Assembly: GCA_032622095.1 (NCBI GenBank)
Contig: CP136069.1
Location: 3,954,976-4,018,975 of the forward strand
Reading direction: 5' to 3'
DNA length: 64,000 bases
DNA from: Siphonodentalium dalli
Lineage: Eukaryota > Mollusca > Scaphopoda > Gadilida > Siphonodentaliidae
Below the pieces are notes generated by a model. That model was not told the origin of the DNA. It saw only the letters and a program-made list of their open reading frames with translations, and made no database searches. Positions 17,841 through 61,146 of this stretch are shown in pieces; the first letter of the stretch is position 1, and every line of letters starts with the position of its first letter. Both the position numbers and the translations under genes were made by a program.

Positions 17841-18556
17841 CATTTTATTTTAACAGGGTTCCCGTGGATTGACGGTACATACACCACGTATATAGATGTG
17901 TAACCCGACATGTTTTATTTTAACAGGGTTCCCGTGGATTGACGGTACATACACCACGTATATAGATGTGTAACGCGACATGTTTTATTTTAACAGGGTT
18001 CCTGTGGATTGACGGTACATACACCACGTATATAGATGTGTAACGCGACATGTTTTATTTTAACAGGGTTCCCGTTGATTGGCGGTACATACACCACGTA
18101 TATAGATGTGTAACGCGACATGTTTTATTTTAACAGGGTTCCCGTTGATTGGCGGTACATACAGCACGTATATAGATGTGTAACCCGACATGTTTTATTT
18201 TAACAGGGTTCCCGTGGATTGACGGTACATACACCACGTATATAGATGTGTAACGCGACATGTTTTATTTTAACAGGGTTCCCGTGGATTGACGGTACAT
18301 ACACCACGTATATAGATGTGTATCGCGACATGTTTTATTTTAACAGGGTTCCCGTGGATTGACGGTACATGCACCACGTATATAGATGTGTAACGCGACA
18401 TGTTTTATTTTAACAGGGTTCCCGTGGATTGACGGTACATACACCACGTATATAGATGTGTAACGCGACATGTTTTATTTTAACAGGGTTCCCGTGGATT
18501 GACGGTACATACACCACGTATATAGATGTGTAACGCGACATGTTTTATTTTAACAG
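17841..18556 (+). repeat. 70-bp tandem array carrying a splice acceptor in every unit
   Basis: Ten full 70-base units start at 17841 and then every 70 bases from 17911 to 18471. A 16-base head (18541-18556) becomes the acceptor of the lectin exon. Each unit holds TTTTATTTTAACAG, a good polypyrimidine/AG acceptor, then 43-45 bases that after a 2-base phase read FPWIDGTYTTYIDV and TAA. The real exon starts in the same phase with YGVSIDG. So each unit looks like the acceptor plus the first ~15 codons of a lectin exon. Copies differ at a few positions (for example the variant GTTGATTGGCGG at 18051-18190). Confidence 0.93.
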
Positions 18557-18774
18557 ATTATGGCGTGTCGATTGACGGCAGGGATAGAGACGGATCGGAC
18601 GTCATGATGACGTGGGACGGAGTGAGGCTGCCGTTCGTTGACTGGGCGCCCGGTGAGCCATACGGCGGGGATGAGGACTGCATGGGCGCCGGGTACTACT
18701 CCTCTCGGGGCCGGTATCTGATGTTTGACTATACATGCAGCTACGGACGCCAGTCTGTGTGCGAGATGATGTGA
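18557..18774 (+). CDS. C-type lectin domain, 3'-terminal exon
   Basis: Follows TTTTATTTTAACAG and enters in phase 2 (two bases complete a codon). It encodes about 71 residues and a TGA at 18772-18774. Visible C-type lectin features are SIDG near the start, MTWDG, FVDWAPGEPYGGDEDC, MFDYTC and a final VCE. The three cysteines match the second half of the CTLD disulphide pattern. The usual sugar/calcium motif EPN reads EPY, and WND reads MFD, so classical mannose-type calcium binding is doubtful. Only the last exon is in view. Secretion and ligand cannot be judged. A broken copy lies 30 bases downstream. Confidence 0.75.
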
Positions 18775-18805
18775 GGCACATGTAACACACGACAGAGACC
18801 AGGGC

Positions 18806-18990
18806 GTGTGACGTCATGATGACGTGGGACGGAGGGAAGCTGCCGTTCGTGGACTTGGTGCCCCGTTATCCACACGGCGGGAATTATGACTGCATGCTCG
18901 CCTCGTACTCCTCATCCGCGGCCGGTATCGAATGTATGACTTCCCATGCATATGGACACCCCCGTCTTTTTGCGAGATGATGTGAGGCAC
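18806..18990 (+). pseudogene. Tandem broken copy of the lectin exon
   Basis: GACGTCATGATGACGTGGG through GATGATGTGAGGCACATG repeats 18597-18783 with many substitutions. It reads MTWDGGKLPFVD, then loses WAPGEP (VPRYPHGG instead), and shifts frame after the ASYSS codons, so the last cysteines are out of frame. The acceptor and first ~35 bases are not duplicated. Probably a non-functional local duplication. Confidence 0.8.
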
Positions 18991-19904
18991 ATGACAGAAT
19001 GACCAGTTATATATATAGGGGCCTATATATATAATGAATACTAACATTTCTGATGCACCTAAAAAGTTGATTTGCAAATGTTGTTTTTGAAGAGTTTAAA
19101 ATCTGGTCATTTTGAGTATGTCATTAGCGTCCAGGGCGGACATTTTTCAAACATCAATTAAATACATAAAATATATCAGTGACTATAACATTTCACATCA
19201 TATTTCAACAACTCAACTTCAATTATAATGGAATTCGGCAGCAAACTGTTTCTGGATTATAAAATTGAATGTTGAATTTATTGGAATGTTGTATGATTAT
19301 TAGGTGTCTGCCTTATTCTGACAAAATATAAAATGTCTGCCTTAGGATGGTCTACAATGTATATTTAAAAAAAACAATTACCAGACGCTAAGTATTTATA
19401 TATCTTATGTTTAAGTATATTTTGTAATGGCTTCTATAGTATTATGGCCTATTGGGCCTATCCATAGCAAAATTATGTAATCAGTTTTGAAAACGAACAC
19501 AAATCAAAAAAGTTTATATGTCTACCTATAATGCGGGTTTTATATGGTTGGTCTGCCAAATCAAAAGTTTGATAAATTTGATTCACAACCAGTCGTAGAC
19601 GAGTTGTGAATAACATTTATCAACCGAGTTTCATAAAATCTTATATTCCAACATAACGAGTTTCAGATCTTGTATAGCACATACAAAAGTAGAGCTTTAT
19701 GCCTTTTTAACAAATCAAAATCCTTAAAAGAAGATAGAAAATGCATACATTTGCAGCGTTGGCTGAGATGCTTCACAATCGTATATGACTGACAGTATTG
19801 CGCACTTTGGGGCTGGTGGCGGAAAGTATAGTTCCCCAATTTGCCTCTTTGTTTTTATGTCTATTTTCGATAGTGCAACGAAGTTAACAATAATTTAACG
19901 TTAA
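18991..19904. other. AT-rich intergenic DNA, no feature recognised
   Basis: No exon, RNA gene or clear repeat seen. A short imperfect palindrome of TATATA lies at 19007-19033. Confidence 0.5.
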
Positions 19905-20400
19905 TGAACAAAACAAAGCAATGCATTGGTGCTGGTGTCATGCGCTGATTTTTGCGATAGTATTTATTCGCCTGAATCAATGTAAAGACGCGTGGTCATT
20001 TTGTTGGCACGATGTCAAGTGATATGTAACTAATTTGCACGCGCCGCCCAGGAAGCACGCATCGATTCATAACTAGTGAGAGATAAGGAAATATGTAATG
20101 GCTTTTTAATGATATAATAGGGGTTTAATGTGATATATATATTTAAATTGAATGTTTGCCTTCATTATTTTGCATTTACTGGTGTTGGTGATCATGCGCG
20201 GCTTTTCGAAATATTATTAATCCGCCTGAATCAATGTAATGACGCATATCATTTTGTTGGCGTGATGCCAAGCGATGTGTAACTAATTTTCCCGGGAAGC
20301 ACGTGCCTATTCATAACTGGTGAGAGATAAGGAAACATGTAATGGCTTTTTAAATTATATAGTAGGGGTTTCATATGCTATATACAAATTGAATGTTTGT
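19905..20400. repeat. Two-copy tandem duplication, ~245 bp
   Basis: 19910-20150 and 20165-20400 share long stretches: GCCTGAATCAATGTAA, CATTTTGTTGGC, GAGAGATAAGGAAA, ATGTAATGGCTTTTTAA and TAGGGGTTT. Moderately diverged. No coding potential seen. Confidence 0.8.
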
Positions 20401-20624
20401 CTTCACTGGTAATCCACATGTGTACCCATGTTACAATTTGTATTTACATCTACAATGTATATGCCACTGACTCAACCATTTTCTGTCATATCTATTTTGA
20501 TAATCAGAATAAAAGAATTAAAATTTATTAAAGCTGGTATATATCTCTTCCTGACAAGTGATTCCTGACACACACAATAAACTCCAGACTATCTCTATCT
20601 CTGCCTCTCATTCAGTCTCTCCCA

Positions 20625-20953
20625 CAATATATGTGACCCTGTGCCAATGCATTCTCTTATATATGCGAGTCGACCATATAACAATTTTTTATCAATGGAG
20701 CCCCACACATATATAGAAGCATATAGAAGAGTGTCGTCTGCTCATGTTTGTCTGGGGCTCTGTATGATTAAATTATAAAATTGTTAAAGAATACAAGAAA
20801 AAATTATTAAAATTGTCAAAAATTGTTAGGCCAATGAATTCTCTTATATATGCGAGGCGACCTATGGTCGACTCGCATATATAAGAGAATGCATTGGCAC
20901 AGGGTAAAAAAATCCCGACTTACGACTGGATTTGATATGGCGGGTCACATATA
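20625..20953. mobile_element. Composite hairpin MITE with GTGACCC/GGGTCAC ends
   Basis: Outer ends ATATGTGACCC and GGGTCACATATAT are inverted. Inside are a truncated left copy of the 69-bp hairpin module (GCCAATGCATTCTC at 20643), a nested inverted hairpin MITE whose ends read GAGCCCCACACATATA and GTCTGGGGCTC (about 20698-20765), an AT-rich spacer, and a complete right hairpin at 20830-20898. A nest of at least three insertions. Confidence 0.75.
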
Positions 20954-22120
20954 TCTCTGGGCTATTTAAATCAGCAGACTCCAGTTAACAATGGGAGTGT
21001 CTGTCATCACCTATGTGATACACAATTACCCCCCTTATACCATAACGCTCACACCCTTCAAAAATGAATAACCAACAGACAAAATACACCATAAGGTGAT
21101 GACAGGTCATGGGTATATGGTGCACCCTCTCTCTCTCTACCCGAATTAAAAATGTTCAGAAATGAGTTTGATATGGGCGCTATAACGGCTATATATATAT
21201 ATAAAATCGACTAATTTCATTCACGTTAAAAACAAACTTATGTACAAGAGAATTTGAATGTTGAACGGACGTTGAATGTTGTGCTAACTACACACGAATG
21301 TTGAATGATGTGCTAACTTCATGGACCCGTTCAACTGTGCGTGGGTGAATAATATGCCATTTGTTGTTGCTAAATCACCTCTGTGGACATATATAACCAC
21401 AACAGGCACTGGTCTACATACTCATACTGACTGTGGATTCTTCTTCTTGTGCCACCAGTCCATCTAAAAATCTCAAGATATCCTCGTGCCAATAGGATCA
21501 AATTAGACCTATATATTCACATAGGTTCAAATTAGACCTATATATACACATAGGTTCAAATTGGACCTATATATTCACATATAGGTTCATATTGGACTTA
21601 TTTTTCAGAAATAATCCCACATTGAGCTTATATCCTTTATTCCGTTGAATGGTGCGGGCCCGGAAACACGTTTGGAAGAGCGTGCATCTGGGAAGTCGTA
21701 TCGATGAAAAAGTTGATTAAATAGTGCCAATATATGGGCTTATTTCGTATTGAAACAAGCACATATCCGCCTTATTTTGAACACCGCGTTTTACGCCTAC
21801 ACAGGGTGTACTTTTTTCTCAAATACTCTTTATATGGGCCTAAAACGCGACATTCAAAATAATCCCGTATGTTACTTCTTTTCACAAATCAGTTCATATT
21901 GGCATTATTTGAGAACTCAAATACGTTCTATATAGACCTAAACTCTGGTTATTAAAACGGCCCCATTTGGAAATTTTGCGCTTATTATCAATAAAACAGG
22001 CTGGAAAATAACACTAATAAACAAACTCACAGCCTACCATAATTATGTATGCTCTTTATACTGGGTTTGCATTATGACCGGCACCATGCATCCAACGGAA
22101 TAACGGGTATACGTCCCGTT
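20954..22120. other. Intergenic DNA with a short minisatellite
   Basis: No gene seen. At about 21490-21605 a ~38-base unit (AGGTTCAAATTAGACCTATATATTCACAT) is repeated about four times. A pair of ATGTTGAATG-type repeats lies near 21250-21310. The remainder is AT-rich. Confidence 0.55.
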
Positions 22121-22123
22121 TAG

Positions 22124-22505
22124 CCCTTTACCCAACAAACCGGCCAAATAAAGCTTCAACAGCCTAAAATATCTTCGGTCTGTCTCAATAGAACCATACA
22201 AATATGGATATCATTGGAACCGGCTCCTTGACCACATTGTGATAGTTACAGTTATGCCCTGTGCCAATGCATTCTCTTATATATGCGAGTCGACCATAGG
22301 TCGCCTCGCATATATAAGAGAATGCATTGGCCTAAAAAAAATCTTTTTTTAACACTTTTTACCATTTTTTCTTACATTCTTTAACAATTTTATAATTTTT
22401 AATTTGTTAAGCCAATGCATTCTCTTATATATGCGAGGCGACCTATGGTCGACTCGCATATATAAGAGAATGCATTGGCACAGGGCCGTTCTGTTGGGTA
22501 AAGGG
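22124..22505 (+). mobile_element. TTAA-type (piggyBac-like) MITE, family A, copy 1
   Basis: Terminal inverted repeats CCCTTTACCCAACA and TGTTGGGTAAAGGG. The right flank is TTAA and the left flank TTAG, a decayed TTAA. It carries two hairpin modules in opposite orientation at 22263-22331 and 22411-22479, between conserved arms (AAAGCTTCAACAGCC, GGATATCATTGGAACCGG). TTAA duplication and CCC starts are hallmarks of piggyBac-mobilised MITEs. No transposase inside. Confidence 0.85.
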
Positions 22506-22509
22506 TTAA

Positions 22510-23589
22510 GGGCTTAAATCAGAATCAAATAAGTCCAAAATGAACACATGTGAATATTTATCTTTATATATATTTGCTAATGTCTATCTGTGTTCTACAG
22601 AAATTCACAGGGGACCATCTAAATGGCACCAAATGGGTCTACTATAGGGGTAATTTTTTACGAGAAAGATAATGACGCGGGTTAGAATTTCTAAAGTGAT
22701 GCCGTTGTTGTCAGGGACAGACAAGGGGGAGGGCCGATTTCCACCAGATTGATACACATTCTTCTCCGTAATACGAGTAAGCTAATCGTGTGGTATAGAT
22801 ATGCCAAATTGGTGCCGCCTGGGTGAGAGATATGGGTGGGCTAAATTTGATACGAATTTGTATACTCGCCAATTTTCATCAAATTTATATATATGCATAT
22901 CCATAATGAGTAAGTGTGTGGTTTAATGATGACAAAATTGGCGCCGCTTCAGTCTAAAATAGGGACGGGAGGGTCACCAAAACTGATTTAGTCTGTTCCA
23001 TTCAATATAGTTTCCACAAAAAATTACAATAAACCACTCAAAATCTAGCTGTCGTGCACATGTAGCTGATATACATGTACAGCACAGCAACATTTCTTTT
23101 AACCTGAGAATATTTTGCCAATATATAGCGCCATGAACAAAACATTTCTTTAAAACACCCCATGGAGATATGATAGCCAGGTGTCCTCAAAATCTTAGTC
23201 TAACCCACTAGATTGATTGATACATCTCTATATATATGTAAAACCCAATTGTCGTCTTTTATTTTTGCGAACTAATGTGTTTATGATGTTCTTTCGTGTC
23301 ATAACGTCTGACGTATACGCAGTTGTAAATAAATAAATAAATACTTCTTTATTGGTGGAACGTATTAATCGGGATAAACAAAATGACAATCGACAAGGTG
23401 AGCCACTACTTATATTCCATGTGTAAGAATCGTGTTTTGTGATGCTATTTGAATATACAATTTATGAGAAAACGTGTAACACTTTCAGCAAGAGTATTCT
23501 CTATTCCCACAAAATATCCACAGCATGCAGAGAGTTTCACATCTCTTTAACCTGGGCAACGCCATCTAACCCTGCTAGTTGTCTATATA
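22510..23589. other. Intergenic DNA, no gene recognised
   Basis: Two related stretches with GGTGCCGCCTGGG/GGCGCCGCTTCAG and GGTAGAGATATGCCAAATT-type words suggest a decayed duplicated repeat around 22720-22990. Otherwise AT-rich with nothing recognised. Confidence 0.45.
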
Positions 23590-24450
23590 GTCCCACCATA
23601 TGAGGGAAGCAGGCCCCCAGTAACCCCTAATTAAATTTTTACGACATGGAAATGCTATATATTTGTGCAGGAGATGTCTCTTTACTGAATTGTACTAGAA
23701 CTACTGGGTGGAGACACACTCTCATGGGACAGGGAAGCTGATAATAACAATAGGGGTTTCTACCCAATTTTAAGTCAATATGTACACCAAAATTATGAGG
23801 GGATACTTAGTGTCCTCAGGGACCCCTAATTCCATTTATATGACCATGGTAATGCAATATATCTGTGGAGATATTTCGTATCTGAAATATACTAGAGCCC
23901 CGGGCTGTAGACACATTCATGGGACAGGGATGCTGATGATAAAATTGGCATTTTTACCTAATTTTAAGTCAAAAAGTACACCACATGAGGGAAGCAAGCC
24001 CCCATGGACCACTTCTTTGACCATGGAAATGGTATATATCTGTGCAGGAGGTGTCCATTTAATAAAGTATACTAGAGCTCCGGTGTTAAGACACTTAATT
24101 CATGAGGCAGGGACGCCATTTTCGAGTCAATATAAATATATGCCCACCACATGAAGTAATCAGGCCCACAGTAACCTATTTTTCCCCATCTTATGGCCAT
24201 GGACATAATATATATCTGTGCAGAAGATGTCCCTTTACTGAAATTTATTGGAGCTCAGGGGTGGAGACACACATTCATGTGACAAGGATGCTGATATTGA
24301 AATAGGGGGTTTTACCAATTCAAGCCCAAGGGACCCTAATTCCCTTTTTATGACCATGTAAATTGTATATATCTGAGATGTCCTTCATTCAAATATACCA
24401 GAGCTCCGGATGGAGACACACATTCGTGGGGCAGGGATGATGATATGCAT
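23590..24450. repeat. Diverged tandem repeat, ~160-200 bp unit, five copies
   Basis: The landmark GACCATGGAAATG..TATATCTGTGCAGGAG..GTCC recurs near 23643, 23842, 24019, 24194 and 24351. Each copy is followed by TACTAGAGCTCC and GGAGACACACATTCATGGGACAGGGATG. Units have diverged by indels. The open frames across them are repeat artefacts. Confidence 0.85.
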
Positions 24451-24821
24451 TTGGAAATAAATAATCGTTGAGTGTTGCCACGACGGAGGACGAGCTAGCC
24501 GACAGACAGCAAAAAATGCCAGCTAACTAAACGACCATAGGGCCTGGCATTTTTCAGTTCAATTTTGCCAGCATATGACAGGACCCGTAATGTCTGAAAA
24601 GATGAATCAGTATTGATTATTTATGTCTGCCAGACTATTGAAAACATGATTGAATAATATTTATGTTATTTTATGACGTTTTGGTCACTCATACAAATAG
24701 TTCTTCCAATGGCTGTCAAAGAAACTAAAATATGCAATGAAAAATGTTTTATTTATTTTATTGGGTTACGGTCTTAAAATATGGTGCATATTTTTAGTCA
24801 ATATTCGCCCGACTGACCACA

Positions 24822-25208
24822 CTCTAAATAAAGTTTAGTTACGCATGACTAAATTTTAGTCAACTTTTAAGGTCAAAACTCCTCCGAATAAACAATTCTT
24901 AAATAAACTATTTTCTGACTAAATATATACAAACTCAATTGGGTTACCTCGTTTTCCTCCTACACAATTTTAGTTAATTGTAACTCACTAAATTGGGTCA
25001 AAATTAATTAGTAACTCTTAACCCAATATTTAGTAAGGTTTTAACCCAATATGTAACTAATCATTGGGTTACACAAAGTAACCAAATGGAATTGTGTTAT
25101 AAAATTAACTTAATATTTTGTAGCCTTTAACTAGAATTGAGTCATGTATGACTAAATAATGTGGGTCAAAAGTGACTAAATATTGGGTCCATGTTCTTCT
25201 CAGTGTAA
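24822..25208. mobile_element. Putative MITE whose right end seeds the following minisatellite
   Basis: The left end CACACTCTAAATAAAG and the right end, read in reverse as TTACACTGAGAAGAAC, are similar inverted ends. The body is filled with TTTAGTCA / TTGGGTTA words in both orientations. No ORF. Family not identified. Confidence 0.5.
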
Positions 25209-26041
25209 GATAAATGGGAGTTCCCAGACGTGATTTTTGTTCATGTTCTTCTCAGTCTAAGATAAATGGGAGTTCCCAGACGTGATTTTTGTTCATGTTC
25301 TTCTCAGTGTAAGATAAATGGGAGTTCCCAGACGTGATTTTTGTCCATGTTCTTCTCAGTGTAAGATAAATGGGAGTTCCCAGACGTGATTTTTGTTCAT
25401 GTTCTTCTCAGTGTAAGATAAATGGGAGTTCCCAGGCGTGATTTTTTTTCATGTTCTTCTCAGTGTAAGATAAATGGGAGTTCCCAGACGTGATTTTTGT
25501 CCATGTTCTTCTCAGTGTAAGATAAATGGGAGTTCCCAGACGTGATTTTTGTCCATGTTCTTCTCAGTGTAAGATAAATGGGAGTTCCCAGACGTGATTT
25601 TTGTTCATGTTCTTCTCAGTGTAAGATAAATGGGAGTTCCCAGGCGTGATTTTTTTTCATGTTCTTCTCAGTGTAAGATAAATGGGAGTTCCCAGACGTG
25701 ATTTTTGTCCATGTTCTTCTCAGTGTAAGATAAATGGGAGTTCCCAGACGTGATTTTTGTCCATGTTCTTCTCAGTGTAAGATAAATGGGAGTTCCCAGA
25801 CGTGATTTTTGTCCATGTTCTTCTCAGTGTAAGATAAATGGGAGTTCCCAGACGTGATTTTTGTTCATGTTCTTCTCAGTGTAAGATAAATGGGAGTTCC
25901 CAGACGTGATTTTTGTCCATGTTCTTCTCAGTGTAAGATAAATGTGAGTTCCCAGACGTGATTTTTGTCCATGTTCTTCTCAGTGTAAGATAAATGGGAG
26001 TTCCCAGACGTGATTTTTGTCCATGTTCTTCTCAGTGTAAG
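25190..26041. repeat. 52-bp minisatellite, about 16 copies
   Basis: The unit runs CATGTTCTTCTCAGTGTAAG, ATAAATGGGAGTTCCCAGAC, GTGATTTTTGTC. Variants (GTTC, GTCC, and GGCGTGATTTTTTTTC) recur in a 4-unit pattern near 25350-25560 and again near 25560-25770, which indicates block amplification. The first half of each unit equals the right end of the preceding MITE; the second half is its flank. The array ends abruptly in a hairpin MITE fragment. Confidence 0.95.
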
Positions 26042-26118
26042 ATAACTCGCATATATAAAAGAATGCACTGGCACATGATCTTTAATGTTGCACCAGCGCA
26101 GCTCCTGTTATGACAGGG
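26042..26118. mobile_element. Fragment of TTAA MITE family C
   Basis: ACTCGCATATATAAAAGAATGCACTGGC then GCACCAGCGCAGCTCCTG..CAGGG and TTAA at 26119-26122. This is the right arm of the family seen complete at 52442-52681. The left arm is replaced by the minisatellite. Confidence 0.75.
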
Positions 26119-26124
26119 TTAACA

Positions 26125-27290: not shown

Positions 27291-27293
27291 CAA

Positions 27294-43087: not shown

Positions 43088-43335
43088 TGTGTTGTTCTGT
43101 AGAAGCTGGCTCACATAGTGATTCTGGTGCTGACGGCTCTAAGTATTTCATGAATAGGTCGTCTGGTATATTTTTTTCACTCAGTGATGTTCTAGTCCGG
43201 GATCGAGTCACAGGACTCCTAGGAACCGACGTCGGCTCCAGATATTTCGCCAGATCAAACACGTCCTCATTTGTTGTCTCTTCCTCTTGAGTATCATTCG
43301 CAAATCGTACTGTTTTATTTGCATGGACACTTCGT
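43088..43335 (-). CDS. HURP-like exon 6: KTVRF motif and KYLEP repeats
   Basis: Acceptor CATGAATTTCAG|ACGAAG; donor CAACACA|GTGAGT. 248 bases, phase 2 in, phase 1 out. It begins RRSVHANKTVRFAND. KTVRF fits the RVxF docking motif of protein phosphatase 1. Two similar short motifs follow: DLAKYLEPTS and LFMKYLEPSA, separated by an Arg/Ser/Thr stretch (RSPVTRSRTRTS). Function of the repeat unknown. The exon is bordered by an 80-bp TTAA MITE 22 bases past the donor and by a family-D tandem 50 bases before the acceptor. Confidence 0.82.
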
Positions 43336-50345: not shown

Positions 50346-50391
50346 TGTAACCCCCAACCAGGAAACTAAGTTGTTTTTTTTTGGGGCTTAC

Positions 50392-50776
50392 CTGAGTGAT
50401 CTCCGTCTCGGTTTGTTTTCTTCCAAACTTAAAACCATCGTCTTCATCTCGCTGACTGACTCATCAAGTGCTAATTTCTTCGACACCAAAGATTGTCTCT
50501 GTGACCTACGTCTCGGCTCTACTTTGGGAGTTGAGTCCTTGAGCAACGGGCTCGGAACGACAGGAACATAACTCCGCCTTGGTTTGAGAATATATGCAGG
50601 ATCGGAAGAATTTGCTCCCGTAATGTCCATTGTTGGCACAAGGTTCTCTTTATCAACAGGAGCGGTTTCATTGTCTGATTCTGGTTCCATTTCTTTTGAA
50701 TCTAAATTCAGAGGTAGTTGACTAGGAGATGAATTGGAGGCAGGCGACGTCCTCAGTCTCCTCGTAGGTGTTCCAG
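50392..50776 (-). CDS. HURP-like exon 5: disordered basic Ser/Pro-rich region
   Basis: Acceptor TTTTTTACATTGCAG|CTGGAAC; donor CACTCAG|GTAAGC. 385 bases, phase 1 in, phase 2 out. Rich in Ser, Pro, Arg and Lys with repeated basic-Ser sites: GTPTRRLRTSPAS, VDKENLVP, KPRRSYVPVVPSPLL, EPRRRSQRQSL and KPRRRSL. R-R-x-S matches the Aurora kinase consensus and S/T-P matches CDK sites. This fits a mitotic HURP-type protein (inference). KEN (in DKENLV) matches an APC/C-Cdh1 degron. Confidence 0.82.
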
Positions 50777-51440: not shown

Positions 51441-51832
51441 CCCTTTACCCAACAAAACGGCCAAAACCGGCCAAATAAAGCTTCAACAGCCTAAAATATC
51501 TTCGGTCTGTCTCAATAGAACCATACACATATGGATATCATTGGAACCGGCTCCTTGACCACATTGTGATAGTTACAGTTATGCCCTGTGCCAATGCATT
51601 CTCTTATATATGCGAGTCGACCATAGGTCGCCTCGCATATATAAGAGAATGCATTGGCCTAAAAAAAATCTTTTTTTAATACTTTTTACCATTTTTTCTT
51701 ACATTCTTTAACAATTTTATAATTTTTAATGTGTTAAGCCAATGCATTCTCTTATATATGCGAGGCGACCTATGGTCGACTCGCATATATAAGAGAATGC
51801 ATTGGCACAGGGCCATTCTGTTGGGTAAAGGG
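51441..51832 (+). mobile_element. TTAA MITE family A, copy 2
   Basis: 392 bases, TTAA on both sides (51437-51440, 51833-51836), CCCTTTACCCAACA ends. Hairpins at 51590-51658 and 51738-51806. Confidence 0.92.
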
Positions 51833-51924
51833 TTAAGGGTAAGAACATTGCAAGGATCATGTAAATATTCATGAAACTCTATATGCCTATTTAGGTCTTA
51901 TCTTGGAGATCGTTTTGGATGCAA

Positions 51925-52345
51925 GTAGACTTCAATAATTATGCCTAAAAATTTACCCATTCCCTACCCAGTAGACTTCAATAATTATGCCTAAAAATTT
52001 ACCCATTCCCTACCCAGTAGACTTCAATAATTATGCCTAAAAATTTACCCATTCCCTACCCAGTAGACTTCAATAATTATGCCTAAAAATTTACCCATTC
52101 CCTACCCAGTAGACTTCAATAATTATGCCTACAAATTTACACATTCCCTACCCAGTAGACTTCAATAATTATGCCTATAAATATAGCCCATTCCCTACCC
52201 AGTAGACTTCAATAATTATGCCTAAAAATATAGCCCATTCCCTACCCAGTAGACTTCAATAATTATGCCTAAAAATTTACACATTCCCTACCCAGTAGGC
52301 TTCAATAATTATGCCTATAAAAATAGCCCATTCCCTACCAAGTAT
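51925..52345. repeat. 46-bp minisatellite, about nine copies
   Basis: The unit is CAGTAGACTTCAATAATTAT, GCCTAAAAATTTACCCATTC, CCTACC, with TATAAATATAGCCC variants in later copies. Intron 4 of the HURP-like gene. Confidence 0.93.
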
Positions 52346-52441: not shown

Positions 52442-52681
52442 CCCTTACATGACATGGAGTTTCCTGAAATTTTTGTGAAAACCCTGTGCCAATGAATTGT
52501 CTTATATATGCGAGTCACCCATAGGGAGCCTCGCATATATAAGAGAATATATTGGCCTAACAATATTTACCTTGACCTTGTAAGCCAGTGCATTCTATTA
52601 TAGGAAGACTCGCATATATAAGATAATGCACTGGCAAAGAATCTTTAATGCTGCACCAGCGCAACTCCCATCATGAAAGGG
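52442..52681. mobile_element. TTAA MITE family C, complete copy
   Basis: TTAA at 52438-52441 and 52682-52685. Ends CCCTTACATGACATGGAGTT / AACTCCCATCATGAAAGGG. It contains two diverged hairpin modules (centres CCCATAGGGAGCC and TAGGAAGACTCG) around GGTAAATATTG-type sequence in reverse. 240 bases. Confidence 0.88.
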
Positions 52682-52685
52682 TTAA

Positions 52686-53605
52686 CAAGAAAAATCACAT
52701 TAATTTTGTAAAATAAATGTCCATCTATGGTTGAACAATAAAACAAAATTTCAGGCTATAACATTTTTTGAGTAGGAAGTGGGCAATCAAACCCGATTTA
52801 AATTTTGGGCAAATCAAAGTTTACTATTTATATCTCTTAGATTTGGGCCAAAGAAAAAAACCTCTGCGTTTCCGGTTTCCCGACCTACCTGCCGACATTG
52901 GGCCAACCTGGATTTGTTTCCCAAAAGTTTCTTTTTTGTTTGTTCATGTAATTGACATGTAAAACACATCTTATATTGCTAAATATATACTATATACTAT
53001 GTTTACATTAAGCAGCAATAATTTTAGATGGAATTTTCAAAAACAATTTACTTCTATTAAAATACATGTCTACAGTGGTTGCAGATGAATCGCAATCTCA
53101 GGAATAAATCTGTTCTGAGAGTCGCACGGCCAGGTGAAAATGCGATGTCAACATGATGGCATGGTGCATATTCTGGGTATATTGTCAGATATAAAACTAG
53201 TTTTCTGTCAGAAACTTCAGCAACTGGATACAATGGTATTGAGAATACCAACTTTTATATTGTTTTTAGAATATGGTGCATTAGCCATTATTATATAGAT
53301 GGATTTGGAAAAAAATAAAAAATTGGCAAAAAAAAAAACATTTCCAACCTGTCTACCTGGATTTTTTTTCCCTACTTGCCAACCTGGATATTTTTGCTCA
53401 AGAAATCGGAAACAAACAAGTTTTTTTTGCTGGCCTTATTCATATCTTGTGTGAATGGAATAACAGGGTTAGAAAATAATCTTAAAAACAAGGGCAAGTC
53501 CATCTGTGAATTGGGAATTTTGGGAACAGAAATTTGGAAAACCTGACTATTCGAGAAAACCTGACTATTCGAGAAAACCTGACTATTCTCTCTTGTGAAA
53601 CATTT
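52686..53605. other. Intron sequence with CCAACCTGGATTT words
   Basis: CCGACCTACCTGCCGACATTGGGCCAACCTGGATTTG (in two halves, near 52880-52916) resembles AACCTGTCTACCTGGATTTT / CTTGCCAACCTGGATATTTT at 53347-53395, a decayed repeat pair. A triplicated AAAACCTGACTATTCGAG lies at 53537-53590. No exon seen. Confidence 0.5.
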
Positions 53606-53637
53606 TAACCCTTTCCGTTGCTTAAAAAATACATAAA

Positions 53638-53805
53638 CAAGCCTTGAAATAGGGTGTCTGTCATTTGCAGAATGAGGTCCCAAAAGGGTGAATTTAGTGA
53701 TGCTACCCCGAATAGCGGGCTAGCATCACCAAATTCACCCTCTGGGAACCTCATTTTGCTGGGGACCTCATTCTGCAAATGACAGACACCCTATTTCAAG
53801 GCTTG
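53638..53805. mobile_element. Fold-back element family F, complete palindrome
   Basis: CAAGCCTTGAAATAGGGTGT..GTCATTTGCAGAATGAGGTCC at the left, exact inverse at the right end. The right arm has an extra partial copy (AACCTCATTTTGCTG). It is nested in a sequence starting TTAACCCTTTCCGTTGC (53606) and ending GAAAGG (about 53843). Confidence 0.87.
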
Positions 53806-53911
53806 TACATAAATAGTGTAAAGAAAACAGTCAATGAAAGGATTTTGTGTGAATATATTGTAGAGGATTTGATATGAATGTAGCAGTTAATTTACCTTCA
53901 CATAAGAAATG

Positions 53912-54050
53912 AACGGCGGTTTCAATGTGGTCACAGGATTTTGACCGCGAGAAAAATTCAGCAAACTGCATGAACCCCGAAGGGGTTCATGCGGAGTTTG
54001 CTGATTTTTTATCGCGGTCAAAACCCATGACCACGTTGAATCCGCCGTTT
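53912..54050. mobile_element. Near-perfect 139-bp hairpin element
   Basis: AACGGCGGTTTCAATGTGGTC..TTTTGACCGCGA..TCAGCAAACTGCATGAACCCC, a GAA loop, then the inverse to GGATTCAACGTGG-type and CCGCCGTTT. The palindrome is almost uninterrupted. No ORF of note. Confidence 0.85.
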
Positions 54051-54540
54051 ATTATTTATATTTATATACTTACACTCTTTAAAACACTTCTCCAAATATG
54101 TCAGTGATTTCGTCAAAAAAACTTTTTCGTGCTATTTCGCTGTATTTTCATATTTCGCTTTTTCGTTGTATTTCATATTTCGATAATTCGCTATATTTGA
54201 CATATTATGGGATATGGGATTATATGATAACCAACATTCTGATAGTCAATCGAATATCTCGTGCCACCCGTGCTCGCGATTAGATGCAACTAGCCATCCA
54301 ATCGTGAACCTCGATTACATATTGTTTGCTATCAAATCCTTGGCGTACTCGCTGACTAGATACTCAAGCAGTCGGTAATGTCCGACAATCCCCGGTGATT
54401 TCCGGGACCAATGTGTTCATAAACCTATGAACGACATTGAAAGTGACGTCACGTTACGTTTATGAACGCATTGAATAAGGGGGCGTGTCTACCGTAACGC
54501 TATGGGGAAATCGGAAGAGATATCAGGTGTATGTAAATAT
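54051..54540. other. Intron sequence, nothing recognised
   Basis: TTTCGCTNTATTTCATATTTCG words repeat three times around 54130-54200. Otherwise nothing. Confidence 0.45.
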
Positions 54541-54984
54541 AGTGATATGACGGAACCTTCACGGGACCGACGACCATGAACAATCCGGCATCAAACACTT
54601 TATTCTTACCTTCACAGTGATATGACGGAACCTTCACGGGACCGACGACCATGAACAATCCGGCATCAAACACTTTATTCTTACCTTCACAGTGATATGA
54701 CGGAACCTTCACGGGACCGACGACCATGAACAATCCGGCATCAAACACTTTATTCTTACCTTCACAGTGATATGACGGAACCTTCACGGGACCGACGACC
54801 ATGAACAATCCGGCATCAAACACTTTATTCTTACCTTCACAGTGATATGACGGAACCTTCACGGGACTGACGACCATGAACAATCCGGCATCAAACACTT
54901 TATTCTTACCTTCACAGTGATATGACGGAACCTTCACGGGACTGACGACCATGAACAATCCGGCATCAAACACTTTATTCTCTG
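54541..54984 (-). repeat. 75-bp tandem array spanning the exon 4 splice donor
   Basis: Six copies (54541, 54616, 54691, 54766, 54841, 54916) of a 75-base unit equal to the last 70 bases of exon 4 plus the first five intron bases (GTAAG). Five copies end in a full TGTGAAG|GTAAGA donor (at 54908-9, 54833-4, 54758-9, 54683-4, 54608-9); the last copy diverges after TATCACT. The two copies nearest the exon body code VSPV, the other four VGPV. The unit is 25 codons and stays open throughout. Confidence 0.95.
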
Positions 54985-55093
54985 GCTTTTCTTTTATATC
55001 GGATCCTTCATCCACCTGTTTCTTCATCTGTTTTCTAAAATCGGCAAACTTAGACTTCCCCATAGGTTTCTTCGCCATCTGTTCAGCTTTTTT
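54910..55093 (-). CDS. HURP-like exon 4: FDAG..SPVK motif
   Basis: Acceptor TTTTTTTCCTTAG|AAAAAAGC; first donor TGTGAAG|GTAAGA at 54908-54909. It encodes a basic, probably helical segment (KSKFADFRKQMKKQVDE) and then NKVFDAGLFMVVSPVKVPSY. Human HURP, as I remember it, has a closely similar VFDAGFFRVESPVK after its GKAP domain, which is the main reason to prefer DLGAP5 over DLGAP1-4. The 3' part with the donor is tandemly repeated (54541-54909) in multiples of 25 codons without a stop, so longer in-frame isoforms are possible. Confidence 0.88.
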
Positions 55094-56177
55094 CTAAGGA
55101 AAAAAAATTTACAACTTTATATCCACAATGCATAACAAGGATTTAAAACAAAAAGTGTGCTGCATTTTGTGAAATCATAACATTAAAACAATACGTTAGA
55201 TAAAATTGGAACTTTCAAATTTAGCGATACGGCCGAAAAAACTAAATAATGTGGTTTATAGATGTATTTGCCCGAAAAATAATAGATTCGTAGGCTTTTA
55301 ATTGTTTAATATAATATATATTTATTTTTTGTGTGTGTGTAGTTTTAGAGACTATAGATATTCACAGAATGTATTTCTAGAAAAGTCCCTCTGCATATTG
55401 CAGTGGAATGAGTACAATGTGATTAATTTACTACCGAAAATACCAAACAGCAAAAATATTTCAATATTGAATAAATATGTAATAATTCTTGTATTAATGC
55501 AAACTAAACACTAAAATCAAACTTTAAGACAATATTTTAGCTACTAGTTGATTCCAACTCAACTTCAGGCCGATTAGCAGGACGAAATAAGCTAAAATAC
55601 AATGACTACAAATTTTTACAAATTTCAATGCCAATATTTAATAGGGTCCTTGTGAAATATCATACAGCGTGGGTCGATTGCATGGGTATAAAAGTCGCAA
55701 TTAGTGTGCAGTACAGAAAGAGCGCATAATTTCAGAACAACAATTCCGTTCAGGATTCATTTCTCAATTTTGCATACGCTATTTCAGTATACCGCGTTGT
55801 TTTGAAATTTCGATGATATGATTAGAGATTTTCCAACAATTAGATCGCAGATTAGATTCGAACAAAAATCTGTGATTTGCAGGACCCTAGCCATTGACAT
55901 GAAATACCAACAGTCATAAGTTTGGTCTACAAGGGAGGAGGGGGTGCAGTTACAAGGAGGGGGTGCAGTTACAAGGGGAGGGGGTGCAGTTGGAAGTTGG
56001 ACACCCCATAACCATGTTCAGGTTATTGAAACTGAAACCAAGTATCATATTAATAACCCTTTCTATACTAAATACTCATTAAAGAGTAGTTACCTTATTA
56101 ACCCTCTCTATATACTAAATACTCATTGAAGAGTAGTTCCCTTAGGAAATGTTCAGATAATAAGTTCAACAAATCAC
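55094..56177. other. Intron 3 sequence
   Basis: No exon seen. Three copies of GGAGGGGGTGCAGTTACAAG lie at 55935-55995. AACCCTTTCTATACTAAATACTCATT and AACCCTCTCTATATACTAAATACTC form a direct pair at 56057-56130. Confidence 0.5.
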
Positions 56178-57161
56178 TAGAGATGGGCGGTATTGAATTT
56201 CAATCTCGGTATCGGTAAATTTTCATTGATTTACCTCGGTAACAGTACAGTAATCGGTATTGCTATTAAACTATAAGACAAGAACAGAGGTTCCCGGTAA
56301 ATTGCGGTAATTCAAGTTTTTAACTGAACAATGAAAACATTTTTGGGAAACAAGTTTTTTAAAATGGTTAATTTCCCAAGGCATGTGGGGAAGACGAGGA
56401 ATTCCCCGTCCGAAGAAATATAGTAAATTTCATTCGTCGTTAAATTTGGAGTACTCTGCTCCACAAATCATATTCGGAAACATCACAATAGTTATTTTTA
56501 GATCATTTCTCTAATACGACTTCTGATTGGTTTTTAGTTCCGACAATCTTAAAGCGACATTCGGTCATGACATTCATTATTAATTTTGACAGCTTCAGGT
56601 CAATTGAAGCCCATTTTTTAGCCACTATTCACACATCTCTTTGAAGATTTACACGCACGCTGTCGCAAAAGAACAAAGAATAAGAGATTGCATCATTGCA
56701 TGACTACAATATCTATATGTGTCAATTTTGTCACCTTTTCGTGAGTGAATAGAATTGTGAGTAGTAATCAGTGATCACAATTCACAAATCCCATTCAATA
56801 GTCGCAACGCCGAAATAAATCCGCTGTGCAAACACAACATTGAGAATTTGAGCAAAACACATTGTAAAGATCGAATTCTTAGAATTTAATCAATTGATGG
56901 ATCTGTTCTATTTTTAGAAAGTGAAAGTAAGATTTTGATTCACTGTATAAATGAACTGTCCACATTCATTTGAAAATTGTCTTGATCACAATTAAGGAGT
57001 GTTTACTGTCAGAGAAACTTTACTCAAGACACACAGGTTGGCAACATATGAATAATTTAAGTACCGAAAATTCGGTATTTTTAGTTTTGATTCGGTACAG
57101 TAAATCGGTATTACGTTGATACCGACACCGCACGGTAAATACCGAGTACCGCTCATCTCTA
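56178..57161. mobile_element. hAT-like non-autonomous element, ~0.98 kb
   Basis: Ends TAGAGATGGGCGGTA / TACCGCTCATCTCTA in outline. Flanks CAAATCAC (56170-56177) and AAAATCAC (57162-57169), an 8-bp duplication with one mismatch. Subterminal TCGGTA / TACCG words fill both ends. No transposase. Confidence 0.85.
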
Positions 57162-57394
57162 AAAATCACCATAGGTACTTTTTGTTAAACTTATTAGCTT
57201 AACGTTTCCCGATTATAAATGAATCACATTCTGTTCTTGTTATATCTGTTTATCTGTCTGCTTGTATTACATTAACGCCCCTCCAAATGAATAATAGACA
57301 GTTCCAATTTATACTTTTATAAATAAATGGGAGAATCCATTTAGTATAGATAGGGGTAATATCACCCGTGAGACGGATAATTTCATGTTCGGTT

Positions 57395-57813
57395 CTTACC
57401 TATTAAACACAGCCTTCTTCACGTTTGTTTCTTCCACCCAATTGTTCTCTTTAACTTACCCTATTAAACACACCTTCTTCACGGTTTTTTCTTCCACCCA
57501 ATTGTTCTCTTTAACCTACCCTATTAAACACAGCCTTCTTCACGGTTTTTTCTTCCACCCAATTGTTCTCTTTAACTTACCCTATTAAACACAGCCTTCT
57601 TCACGGTTTTTTCTTCCACCCAATTGTTCTCTTTAACTTACCCTATTAAACACAGCCTTCTTCATGGTTTTTTCTTCCACCCAATTGTTCTCTTTAACTT
57701 ACTCTATTAAACACAGCCTTCTTCACGGTTTTTTCTTCCACCCAATTGTTCTCTTTAACTTACCCTATTAAACACAGCCTTCTTCACGGTTTTTTCTTCC
57801 ACCCAATTGTTCT
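57395..57813 (-). repeat. 61-bp tandem array spanning the exon 3 splice donor
   Basis: Seven units; the six with a 61-base (once 60-base) spacing equal 54 bases of exon 3 end plus GTAAGTT. Donors (plus-strand CTTACC/CCTACC) lie near 57398, 57459, 57519, 57580, 57641, 57702 and 57763. One has a GTAGGT variant (57519 copy), another reads GAGTAAGT. The array begins inside exon 3 and runs into the intron. Confidence 0.94.
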
Positions 57814-57859
57814 CTTTAAGCTTGATGAGGTTCATGAACTTCTTATGAACATCTTCAAC
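57764..57859 (-). CDS. HURP-like exon 3: end of GKAP domain
   Basis: Acceptor ATTTTAATCCCAG|GTTGAAG; donor AATAGG|GTAAGT (consensus). Exactly 32 codons, phase 0 to 0. It reads VEDVHKKFMNLIKLKENNW and VEEKTVKKAVFNR, continuing IQ|VEDV as in GKAP proteins (..QVEDV..KF..L..L....W). The last 54 bases plus the donor are repeated in tandem downstream (57395-57763). Using any later donor would read GTA AGT TAA, a stop two codons past the normal junction. Confidence 0.93.
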
Positions 57860-58537
57860 CTGGGATTAAAATCAGAAAATAAGTAAACAGTTACAAAAAC
57901 AAACCAATAAATGTAGCTACCGGTATCTTCTGGAAACCAATACAAAAAAAGGTCAGCAGACCACAGTGTCCCAGAAAACGTGGCAAGTCGATGCCACTTT
58001 GTTAAAGAAATTAAAAAAAATGTTGAAATTTTCTTAGTCGAAAAGGGTTAATAACTCTATAAAAAAATAATTTTTCCGTCTTCTATATACATGTTGCACA
58101 TCTCCAATATGTGGGTAACAATACACTGAAGTTTCAAATATCTATGATCAAAACTGTAATAGGAGTTGATTACACCATGAAGGTACCCTCATACAGAAAA
58201 TTAAAAAAAATGTTGAAATTTTCTAAACCGAAAAGGGTTAATAACTCTGTCAAAAAATAATTGTTCCGAAAACTGTAGGAGTTGATTACACCATGAAGGT
58301 ACTCAAAAGTGTGACGGATGGACGGACGGTACGACGAACGAACGGACGTAGCCCGTTTCTATAGTCCCCCAAAAATAAATTTTTCGAAGGACAACTAATC
58401 TCTAACTTGAAAAAGGCCCATAACATTGTTAAAGGCCTGGATGGCCTTCATGGTGGGTATGCTGTTAAAATAGTCACAATCGTCAAGTTCGTATGCTAAG
58501 TTATATCCTACAATGCTTCATAACAAACCTGTGTTAA
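57860..58537. other. Intron 2 sequence
   Basis: AAATTAAAAAAAATGTTGAAATTTTCT..CGAAAAGGGTTAATAACTCT occurs twice (58007-58070 and 58198-58255). A GGACGGACGG..ACGAACGGACG stretch with CTATAGTCCCCCAAAAATAAAT follows at 58317-58385. Decayed repeat of the type also at 59760-60520. Confidence 0.55.
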
Positions 58538-58929
58538 CCCTTTACCCAACAAACCGGCCAAAAACGCCCAAATAAGGCTTCAACAGCCTAAAATATCTTC
58601 GGTCTGTCTCAATAGAACCATACAAATATGGATATCACTGGAACCGGCTCCTTGACCACATTGTGATAGTTACAGTTATGCCCTGTGCCAATACATTCTC
58701 TTATATATGCGAGTCGACCATAGGTCGCCTCGCATATATAAGAGAATGCATTGGCCTAAAAAAAATCTTTTTTTAACACTTTTTACCATTTTTTCTTATA
58801 TTCTTTAACAATTTTATAATTTTTAATGTGTTAAGCCAATGCATTCTCTTATATATGCGAGGCGACCTATGGTCGACTCGCATATATAAGAGAATGCATT
58901 GGCACAGGGCCCTTCTGTTGGGTAAAGGG
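58538..58929 (+). mobile_element. TTAA MITE family A, copy 3
   Basis: 392 bases; TTAA at 58534-58537 and 58930-58933; hairpins at 58687-58755 and 58835-58903. Ends 31 bases from exon 2, next to its weak GTTCGT donor. Confidence 0.92.
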
Positions 58930-58960
58930 TTAAAATCATATCCCATGCTTCTTAACGAAC

Positions 58961-59130
58961 CTGTATATAAATCATATCCCAGAACGCTTGTAAATCATCA
59001 CCGTTTACTTCTTTCTCGTCAGCCTTTATTATCTTGAACTCAAAATTATCAACGAGTCCCGAAAACTGTTTGAATCTCTGGGACATCAATAGCTGAGCCT
59101 GACCGATTGTCGTCCTTAACAGACCACTGA
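58961..59130 (-). CDS. HURP-like exon 2: core of GKAP domain
   Basis: Acceptor TTTCATTCTTTTCAG|TCAGTGG; donor ATACAG|GTTCGT, a weak but usable site. 170 bases, phase 1 in, phase 0 out. It reads SGLLRTTIGQAQLLMSQRF, KQFSGLVDNFEF and LQAFWDMIYIQ. QAQLLMSQRFKQFSGLVD is the signature of the DLGAP/GKAP family. Upstream (59131-59575) the acceptor is repeated in a tandem array. Downstream a TTAA MITE ends 31 bases from the exon edge (58929). Confidence 0.93.
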
Positions 59131-59575
59131 CTGAAAAGAATGAAAGAAACGGCATGAAAAGAACGATAGAAACAGCATTAATTATGGTGGGTCTTAACTG
59201 ACGACTGACTGAAAAGAATGAAAGAAACGGCATGAAAAGAACGAAAGAAACAGCATTAATTATGGGTGGGTCTTAACTGACCACTGACTGAAAAGAATGA
59301 AAGAAACGTCATGAAAAGAACGAAAGAAACAGCATTAATTATGGGTGGGTCTTAACTGACCACTGACTGAAAAGAATGAAAGAAACGTCATGAAAAGAAC
59401 GAAAGAAACAGCATTTAATTATGGGTGGGTCTTAACTGACCACTGACTGAAAAGAATGAAAGAAACGGCATGAAAAGAACGAAAGAAACGGCATTTAATT
59501 ATGGGTGGGTCTTAACTAACCACTGACTGAAAAGAATGAAAGAAATGGCATTTAATGATGGGTGGGTCTTAACAG
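59117..59575 (-). repeat. 78-80-bp tandem array spanning the exon 2 splice acceptor
   Basis: The minus-strand unit is (C)TTTCATTCTTTTCAG|TCAGTGGTCAGTTAAGACCC..ACC followed by CATAATTAATGCTG and TTTCGTTCTTTTCATGCCG. Acceptors lie at plus 59131, 59209, 59288, 59367, 59447 and 59527. About 17 bases after each AG match the start of exon 2. The nearest unit is 78 bases and open, so the second acceptor would add 26 codons in frame; units further out are 79-80 bases. Confidence 0.93.
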
Positions 59576-60640
59576 GGGCGACATTGAGCGGCATGACCAA
59601 TAACTGAAATAAACTAAAGGTTTGACTTTTGACTGTCACAATGGGACTAAGGATACCCCCCCCCCCCCCCCCAAATTTTTAAAACACTAAGATGTTTCAC
59701 ATGTCAGTAAACATTTAGTTCAAATAATAAAATAATAGATTGCCATTGCAGGTGCACAACCCTAACCCTAATCCTAAACCTATTCACCGAAAAAAGTAGG
59801 CATAAAAGCTCGGACAAAATATATTCATGTTGGAAAATGTTCTAAGTCGAAAAAGGGGAATAACATCACAAAAAAAAAGTCGGACAGATGTCAAAATCGC
59901 AGGTGCACAGGTTCCCATGGTACTAAATATCTGTGCCATATTTTTTAAAATTGAATTAAAAATGTAGAAATAAAAGCTCAGACAAAATTATACATGTTGT
60001 GAAAATGTTCTAAGTCGAAAAAGGGGGGTTAACTCCACCAAAAAAAGTCTGACAGATGTCATAATCACAGGTGCACAGGTTCCCATGGTGGTTGATGTCT
60101 GTGCCAAGTTTCACGGAAAATGATAACAAAAACGACTGAGAAAAACTCCGGACAAATTTGATTCCATGGAGGGACAAGGTCGCCGACCACAGTGTCGCCC
60201 GAAACGGTGGCTAACTCCAAAATTGGCAGTGTTATTGAAATCGGTTAATAATTGTTCGAGTTATTGCGCTTATGACAAACAAACTGGCGAGAAATTGTGA
60301 AACTAAGGTGAATAACTCAGGTAAGAAAAATCAGTCAAAATTGGTTGTCGAACCAACCCATCCAAGATAGTGTGGCAACCAACTCATAATTTTTATTTTA
60401 TTTAAATCTGTTAATATTTGTTCGAGTTATTGCGCTTACGACCGGATCGGATGGACGGCTACAAAGACGGATGGTGCTGATTTCTATAGTCCCCCGAAAT
60501 TTATTTTCGGGGGACAATTAAAGAACTATCAAGCTAGAGTATGTGCTAAAGGGAGCCTCAAGCTACAGTATATATATCCCTATTTAATGATGCAAGTCAT
60601 CAGCTTGAAATTGCGGGATTCGATACAAGTGACAATGCAG
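59576..60640. other. Intron 1 sequence with decayed repeats
   Basis: Diverged repeats share TGTTCTAAGTCGAAAAAGGGG, ACAGATGTCA and GGTGCACAGGTTCCCATGGT (59830-59930 and 60000-60095). A poly-C run lies at 59657-59672. GTTAATANTTGTTCGAGTTATTGCGCTTA occurs twice (60245, 60412). GGATGGACGG with CCCCCGAAATTTATTTTCGGGGG, a short hairpin, is at 60448-60517. Confidence 0.6.
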
Positions 60641-60651
60641 AACTCTCAGCT

Positions 60652-61146
60652 AAAACAGACCCATTTCCTGGTTCAGATCTCCCCCTAAAACAGACCCATT
60701 TCCTGGTTCAGATCTCCCCCTAAAAGACCCATTTCCTGGTTCTGATCTCCCCCTAAAACAGACCCATTTCCTGGTTCAGATCTCCCCCTAAAACAGACCC
60801 ATTTCCTGGTTCAGATCTCCCCCTAAAAGACCCATTTCCTGGTTCAGATCTCCCCCTAAAACAGACCCATTTCCTGGTTCAGATCTCCCCCTAAAAGACC
60901 CTTTCCTGGTTCTGATCTAGCCCTAAAACAAACCCATTTCCTGGTTCAGATCTCCCCCTAAAACAGACCCATTTCCTGGTTCAGAACTTCAGATCACCCC
61001 CTAAAACAGACCCATTTCCTGGTTCAGATCTTCTCCTAAAACAGACCCATTTCCTGGTTCAGATCTCCCCCTAAAACAGAGTGAGACCCATTTCCTGGTT
61101 CAGATCTCCCCTAAAACAGACCCATTTCCTGGTTCAGATCTCCCCC
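60652..61146. repeat. 35-bp minisatellite, about fifteen copies
   Basis: The unit is CTAAAACAGACCCATTTCCT plus GGTTCAGATCTCCCC, with 32-base variants lacking ACA. On the minus strand each unit reads TCTGTTTTAG|GGGGAGATCTGAACC, an acceptor-like site. The left edge ends in the same TCTGTTTTAG followed by CTGAGAGTTCTGC. Confidence 0.92.

What the first reader, a model, noticed from the sequence alone, without database searches (positions are those of the whole stretch)
17841..61146. General pattern: tandem arrays that start across splice junctions
Four of eight recognised coding exons in this window (lectin exon; HURP-like exons 2, 3 and 4) have tandem arrays whose unit includes the splice site and flanking exon bases, on both strands and at both donors and acceptors. 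Unit lengths differ (70, 79, 61, 75 bases), so these are independent amplifications. By chance, arrays should fall mostly inside introns. I know of no described class of repeat that targets splice junctions this way. Possible causes: R-loop or co-transcriptional breakage at junctions, or tolerance, because a duplicated site rescues splicing when an intronic array grows.
Basis: inference. Interest (0 to 1): 0.9.

Follow-up and report, generated by a model that had tools for sequence, protein, structure and literature searches.

The report
Minisatellites duplicating exon edges ("mirages")
Several genes in this animal genome carry short DNA repeats that copy the edge of an exon together with its splice signal; this is a known kind of repeat, named in lancelets, and in a small sample of other genes from the same genome it is no commoner at exon edges than random seeding would give.

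Summary
Four tandem arrays span coding exon edges: lectin acceptor (70 bp x 10.2), HURP/DLGAP exon 2 acceptor (79 x 5.5), exon 3 donor (61 x 7.0), exon 4 donor (75 x 5.9). They cover 4 of 13 supported junctions, in 4 of 7 supported exons.

The claim of an undescribed, junction-targeting class does not hold. [quoted passage not shown]).

In top-scoring myosin, chaperonin and MCM loci, arrays cover 5 of 174 junctions; uniform seeding predicts 4.1 (P = 0.38) and arrays cover 6.9% of flanking bases. Exon centres: 0 of 58. This fits random seeding plus tolerance. The window itself stays above the sample (Fisher P = 0.0015), but it was noticed for this feature.

Most interesting residue: exon 4's array is an open 25-residue frame repeating a conserved HURP motif. 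Splicing itself is untested. Interest 0.3.

The parts
17843..18556 (+). Tandem array, 70 bp x 10.2, 97% matches, ending on the AG of the lectin exon acceptor; 10 decoy acceptors at 17857, 17927 ... 18487
   Evidence: TRF; copies listed; site scores; the sister duplicate has 5 full units
18557..18774 (+). Terminal C-type-lectin-like coding exon with stop codon
   Evidence: phmmer against PDB: mosGCTL-20, E = 6.4e-4; no Pfam hit for the enclosing frame
61501..61632 (-). HURP/DLGAP exon 1 as modelled, no junction-spanning array; donor fixed by phase, acceptor taken from an AG
58961..59130 (-). HURP exon 2 (GKAP domain)
   Evidence: PF03359 E = 7e-8
59115..59551 (-). Tandem array, 79 bp x 5.5, over the exon 2 acceptor; unit carries 16 exonic bases; 5 decoy acceptors scoring 9.8 like the real one
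57764..57859 (-). HURP exon 3, 32 codons, ends phase 0
57395..57819 (-). Tandem array, 61 bp x 7.0, over the exon 3 donor; about 55 exonic and 6 intronic bases per unit; read-through meets a stop after 2 codons
54910..55093 (-). HURP exon 4, ends with a FDAGLFMVVSPVK motif that aligns to human HURP
   Evidence: aligned to human DLGAP5 in PDB 8x9p
54541..54981 (-). Tandem array, 75 bp x 5.9, over the exon 4 donor; five identical GAAG|GTAAG donors (54909, 54834, 54759, 54684, 54609); open 25-residue frame throughout
50392..50776 (-). HURP exon 5, phase-consistent, no junction array
43088..43335 (-). HURP exon 6, phase-consistent, no junction array (another array lies about 46 bases from its acceptor)

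Best explanation
These are junction-spanning minisatellites of the 'mirage' kind. Step 1 (inferred): a short local tandem duplication happens at an essentially random place; sometimes the duplicated unit crosses an exon edge. Step 2 (supported by reading frames, not by RNA): the copy nearest the exon still gives the original junction, so the extra copies are simply intron and are tolerated; a duplication inside the exon would often break the protein and be lost. Step 3 (a difference is shown for the lectin array; the process is inferred): once copies exist, their number drifts by slippage or unequal exchange, here 10 units versus 5 in a duplicate of the region. The cluster of four in this window is a local, post hoc excess in an array-rich stretch.
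For: Units differ in length and sequence. For HURP exons 2 and 3 only the exon-proximal site gives the frame that aligns to human DLGAP5; distal sites of the lectin, exon 2 and exon 3 arrays lead to stops (lectin unit frame; exon 2 unit read). Exon 4 is frame-neutral and so does not discriminate. Similar structures in conserved genes elsewhere: myosin L015/L017 (67 bp donor, one event in two paralogues), chaperonin L065 (63 bp donor), L069 (39 bp donor), L051 (55 bp acceptor, not called by TRF), myosin L029 (83 bp donor, only 5 exonic bases). Rate at junctions 5 of 174, expected 4.06 by uniform seeding. Exon centres with a nearby copy 0 of 58; intronic points 219 of 3480. Lectin array 5 units in the duplicate, 10 in the window.
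Against: In the window 4 of 13 junctions are covered, more than in the sample (Fisher P = 0.0015), more than look-alike sites of the window (P = 0.026) and more than the one-unit-overhang null (P = 0.0005). The sample is small, taken from the best-scoring matches and redundant: 68 loci form 39 exon groups, and 23 loci are one myosin exon group. By group it is 3 events in about 78 junctions (P = 0.27), or 4 with L051 (P = 0.11). Splice sites in the sample were called with a recalled consensus matrix, not RNA. Exon centres at 0 of 58 are only P = 0.023, under an independence that does not hold. No RNA data show that the proximal sites are used.
Confidence: 0.78

Rival explanations
1. Arrays are actively seeded at splice junctions, for example by transcription-coupled breakage, R-loops, or slippage between acceptor-like or donor-like motifs.
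For: Window excess under the one-unit-overhang null and against the sample and the window's look-alike sites; the first partial copy of the lectin array consists of the acceptor motif ttttattttaacag.
Against: 5 of 174 junctions outside the window against 4.06 expected; 6 of 174 if L051 is added, P = 0.22; intronic look-alike sites are in arrays at 1.7% in the sample, Fisher P = 0.22; 31 of 35 window arrays are not on a supported junction.
Confidence: 0.1
2. The exon 4 array is coding, not intronic: in-frame alternative donors give HURP isoforms with one to five FDAGLF repeats, so a junction array becomes a protein length polymorphism.
For: Period 75 is 25 codons, no stop in the array, five identical strong donors; four further array copies score as protein matches in the genome search. 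L065 and the first copies of L069 also look in phase and open (63 and 39 bp, read by eye).
Against: The aligned human DLGAP5 stretch has the motif once; the last copy lacks a donor; no RNA evidence; other arrays (61, 67, 70, 79 bp) are not in phase.
Confidence: 0.2
3. The repeated sites are functional decoys that regulate splicing (slow down, select or pair splice sites).
For: Decoys score about as high as the real sites.
Against: Copy number differs two-fold between duplicates of the lectin region, and 21 of 23 loci of one myosin exon group have no TRF array at the junction that carries it in L015 and L017, so no sign of constraint.
Confidence: 0.04
4. The arrays are assembly artefacts.
For: Tandem arrays are prone to misassembly in general (general knowledge).
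Against: Copies of three of the four arrays carry several variants, exon 4's copies only one; an array of the lectin unit with a different copy number lies in a separate duplicate; the assembly has 2.23 Gb in 9 contigs, the six whose length I saw being 212-299 Mb.
Confidence: 0.03

Closest known systems
[quoted passage not shown] PMC3902484, passages; the naming paper Canestro 2002 is not held and was not read)
   Same: Unit spans the boundary; both 5' and 3' boundaries occur; units of tens of bases to about 160; copies carry AG/GT signals; copy number varies
   Different: The host here is probably not a Branchiostoma (2.23 Gb in 9 contigs; a lancelet paper speaks of 19 chromosomes); four lie within 64 kb, three in one gene found once in the genome; splicing and within-individual instability untested here
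Tandem genomic duplication crossing an intron-exon boundary, potato RdRp gene (PMC4974935, abstract)
   Same: Duplicated unit crosses an intron-exon boundary and inherits splice signals
   Different: There a new intron was gained from a tandem duplication; here no new intron is shown and copy numbers are 5 to 10
Internal tandem repeats (minisatellites) in human paralogues, some at exon-intron boundaries (PMC2812944, passages)
   Same: Boundary minisatellites that may change exon and intron structure
   Different: Studied there in recent human segmental duplications
Rogers and Gao-Lynch intron gain by internal duplication (known here only as cited in PMC3087553 and from recall)
   Same: Exon 3 and exon 4 units carry an AG followed by GT
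   Different: No gained intron demonstrated here

Membership tests
Mirage (boundary minisatellite) | Tandem repeat whose unit spans an exon-intron boundary | tested here: met
   Four arrays; the lectin unit's exonic part rests on resemblance to exon starts
Mirage (boundary minisatellite) | Can affect both 5' and 3' exon boundaries | tested here: met
   Two acceptors and two donors in the window
Mirage (boundary minisatellite) | Units of about 10-160 bp that differ between loci | tested here: met
   70, 79, 61, 75 bp; 67, 63, 39, 55, 83 bp elsewhere
Mirage (boundary minisatellite) | Many internal copies keep AG/GT splice signals | tested here: met
   Site scores
Mirage (boundary minisatellite) | Copy number varies between haplotypes | tested here: inconclusive
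   10 versus 5 units between duplicates of the lectin region; alleles not available
Mirage (boundary minisatellite) | Regular splicing is not disturbed | not testable with these tools
   No RNA data; frames only
Mirage (boundary minisatellite) | Somatic instability (reported for Adh3) | not testable with these tools
   Needs reads from several tissues
Mirage (boundary minisatellite) | Reported range: cephalochordates (a distribution, not a structural criterion) | tested here: inconclusive
   Species not identified; 2.23 Gb in 9 contigs speaks against a Branchiostoma (lancelet genome size of about 0.5 Gb is recalled)
Intron gain by tandem duplication | A new spliced intron arises from the duplicated unit | not testable with these tools
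   No RNA, and intron positions of relatives were not compared

The most novel reading that the evidence does not exclude
In this unidentified, very large animal genome, junction-spanning minisatellites form recurrently in a lineage apparently far from lancelets, and some (HURP exon 4, chaperonin L065 and L069) are in phase and open, so that repeated donors turn an intronic array into a length-variable protein segment; HURP would then carry one to five copies of a conserved motif by donor choice.
Probability: 0.12. Interest if true: 0.6.

Novelty: new member of a known kind. Interest (0 to 1): 0.3.

Why it matters
If the species is indeed not a lancelet, this extends a structure reported from single lancelet genes to several conserved genes of another animal genome, with a first rough rate (5 of 174 sampled junctions) and a null that explains that rate without targeting. 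It gives natural test cases with up to eleven similar splice sites in a row for asking how the spliceosome picks the exon-proximal one, and candidate intermediates for intron gain or for protein repeats.

Tried and rejected
Targeting of junctions was tested on loci of three protein families outside the window and not supported. A strict 30-base self-copy test found 2 of 113 junctions with a nearby copy (L051, L069) against 219 of 3480 intronic points; it did not flag L015, L017 and L065, which TRF does. Idea that other large arrays are junction arrays with unseen exons (25187-26045 with TTCTTCTCAG; 51924-52344; 60650-61146): splice-like motifs are there by eye, but I recognised no exon beside them and made no family search of those flanks, so they are not counted. 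Pfam hits of the exon 4 array to phage and other families have no significant single stretch and look like repeat artefacts. Mollusc haemocyanin marker PF14830 gave nothing, but its control rang nowhere, so it says nothing about the phylum. A search for nine-pseudomolecule assemblies listed 30 of 33 papers, none of which I could match by size.

Choices that affect counts: TRF minimum score was 50 for the window and 40 for the sample and. In one search I set the unit of several composite arrays by hand to a shorter unit. The summed unit length behind the seeding rate includes the junction arrays themselves, which raises the expectation slightly. Sample loci: 30 of 85 myosin matches, 30 of 53 chaperonin matches, 10 of 24 MCM matches; 123 kinesin matches were located but not fetched. 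L045 and L046 (long intronless frames) were dropped from the junction, exon-centre and rate counts. Junctions without a candidate site scoring 1 or more were dropped: 132 of 136 kept, 42 of 42, where 21 of the 24 neighbouring matches entered were usable.
Full report
Observation. Tandem Repeats Finder gives 35 merged arrays with period of at least 10 in window 14001-64000, covering 16.7% of it. Four of them lie on coding exon edges. Lectin acceptor: 17843-18556, 70 bp x 10.2, ending on the AG before 18557. HURP exon 2 acceptor: 59115-59551, 79 bp x 5.5. HURP exon 3 donor: 57395-57819, 61 bp x 7.0. HURP exon 4 donor: 54541-54981, 75 bp x 5.9. Copies set in register with the splice site are listed. 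The remaining 31 of 35 arrays are not on a supported junction.

Gene models. The minus-strand gene is a DLGAP-family gene: GKAP domain, E = 7e-8. Joined exons 1-6 match human DLGAP5 (HURP) in PDB 8x9p over residues 8-186, E = 1.6e-26, in one stretch with no gap at the joins of exons 1-4. All 10 matches listed by a genome search with that protein lie in this window. Intron phases agree across exons 1-6 (read from the sequence). The lectin exon matches a C-type lectin, E = 6.4e-4, though Pfam gave no hit for its frame.

Anatomy. The extra copies carry splice sites about as strong as the real one on a consensus matrix recalled from memory: acceptors 9.8 in the real and five decoy exon 2 sites; donors 10.4 in five exon 4 copies; donors 6.3-10.3 in the exon 3 copies, 10.3 for the real one; acceptors 8.2-9.1 in the lectin array against 7.4 for the real site. 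For exons 2 and 3 only the exon-proximal copy gives the frame that aligns to human HURP. Read-through from exon 3 stops after two codons; the lectin unit read in the exon's phase reaches a stop (in a unit of the duplicate's array); the exon 2 unit does so as well (read). Exon 4 is the exception: 75 bases are 25 codons, the array is open, and each copy repeats the FDAGLF motif, which the aligned human stretch has once.

Dynamics. Window 16255-22122 has a duplicate at C9:1938175-1944002, about 2 Mb away, 92-98% identical in its aligned pieces. Its lectin array has 5 full units against 10 in the window. The duplicate's exon start resembles the unit start (TCCCGTG..ATTGACGG.AC; 5 of 5000 shuffles as good), which supports an exonic part in the unit; the window's own exon is less clear (26 of 5000). 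In one group of 23 myosin loci, a 67-bp donor duplication is in two, L015 and L017.

Is it more than chance? In the window, 4 of 13 junctions are covered. If arrays are rotated freely, 2.18 are expected (P = 0.19). If an array may overhang an exon by at most one unit, which selection on the exon implies, 0.40 are expected (P = 0.0005). The window was noticed because of this feature, so an outside sample is needed. I took the best-scoring loci of myosin head (30 of 85 matches), chaperonin Cpn60/TCP1 (30 of 53, of which 28 used) and MCM (10 of 24) from the same genome. Of 132 called junctions, TRF arrays cover 4: L015 and L017 (one event), L065 and L069. Another 42 junctions from 21 of 24 neighbouring myosin matches add one, L029, with only 5 exonic bases. 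Total 5 of 174. Uniform seeding at the rate seen in the sample (94 arrays, summed unit length 4298, in 184,261 bases; the junction arrays are included) predicts 4.06; P of 5 or more is 0.38. With the acceptor duplication of L051, which TRF does not call, it is 6, P = 0.22. By exon groups it is 3 of about 78, P = 0.27, or 4 with L051, P = 0.11. Array coverage of flanking bases is 6.9%, so junctions are, if anything, covered less (P of 5 or fewer = 0.016). Intronic look-alike splice sites lie in arrays at 1.7% in the sample (Fisher P = 0.22 against 5 of 174) and 8.4% in the window (P = 0.026 against 4 of 13); the window figure includes the decoys of the four arrays themselves. Exon centres have a nearby copy in 0 of 58, intronic points in 219 of 3480. 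The window's 4 of 13 remains above the sample's 5 of 174 (Fisher P = 0.0015). I read this as a local cluster in an array-rich stretch, helped by selection of the example; a true local or gene-specific excess is not excluded.

What is known. [quoted passage not shown] Units there are 150-160 bp in globin genes and 10-72 bp in Adh3, with 6 and 3 copies in two haplotypes of one gene; the authors' RT-PCR suggests that regular splicing goes on, and they propose a route to intron gain (PMC3087553; passages, section 16). The PGBD5 paper adds 60- and 108-bp repeats and cites Adh and troponin C (PMC3902484, passages). The naming paper (Canestro 2002) is not held and was not read. A potato gene shows a duplication crossing an intron-exon boundary that made a new intron (PMC4974935, abstract), and human paralogues have minisatellites at exon-intron boundaries (PMC2812944, passages). 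So the kind is known. A genome-wide rate of such arrays did not show in the listings of the searches made, which cover only the open library.

Which animal. The window lies in a 2.23-Gb assembly of 9 contigs. The lancelet pangenome paper speaks of 19 chromosomes (PMC12373286, passages), so this is probably not a Branchiostoma. The species stayed unidentified. If it is not a lancelet, the finding widens the range of mirages known to me from these papers.

Verdict. Observation confirmed; class already described; targeting not supported by a small sample; tolerance plus random seeding best supported. Shown: structure, frames, copy-number difference between duplicates, presence in other conserved genes, sampled rate. 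Inferred: origin by random local duplication, use of the exon-proximal sites, slippage or unequal exchange.

Noticed in passing
window 3-7881 and 10418-13849: Two very long (CAT/ATC)n trinucleotide arrays of about 7.9 and 3.4 kb.
   Followed up: no
window 14093-15316 (-): Open frame of 407 residues beside the trinucleotide arrays, with no convincing Pfam match (best E = 0.22).
   Followed up: no
window 20698-20957, and similar stretches near 51620-51800, 58700-58900 and 61700-62000: Palindromic dispersed repeat (tatataagagaatgcattggc); window 20698-20957 has copies of 97-98% identity among the matches listed, on all nine contigs (40 of 5559 candidates scored). The other places were seen by eye.
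   Followed up: partly
window 16255-22122 and G000 C9:1938175-1944002: Segmental duplication carrying the lectin exon and its array, with half the array copies.
   Followed up: yes
window 18808-18990: Second, decayed partial copy of the lectin exon just downstream (seen by eye in the sequence).
   Followed up: no
window 25187-26045: 52-bp x 16.5 array whose unit contains an acceptor-like TTCTTCTCAG but no recognised exon.
   Followed up: partly
L069 1602-2050: Chaperonin exon donor repeated as a unit of about 39 bp roughly ten times, apparently in phase and open in its first copies (by eye).
   Followed up: partly
G000 C4 around 274.2-275.5 Mb: Cluster of eleven closely related myosin-head matches of the same exon; six chaperonin exons also occur as close pairs.
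   Followed up: no
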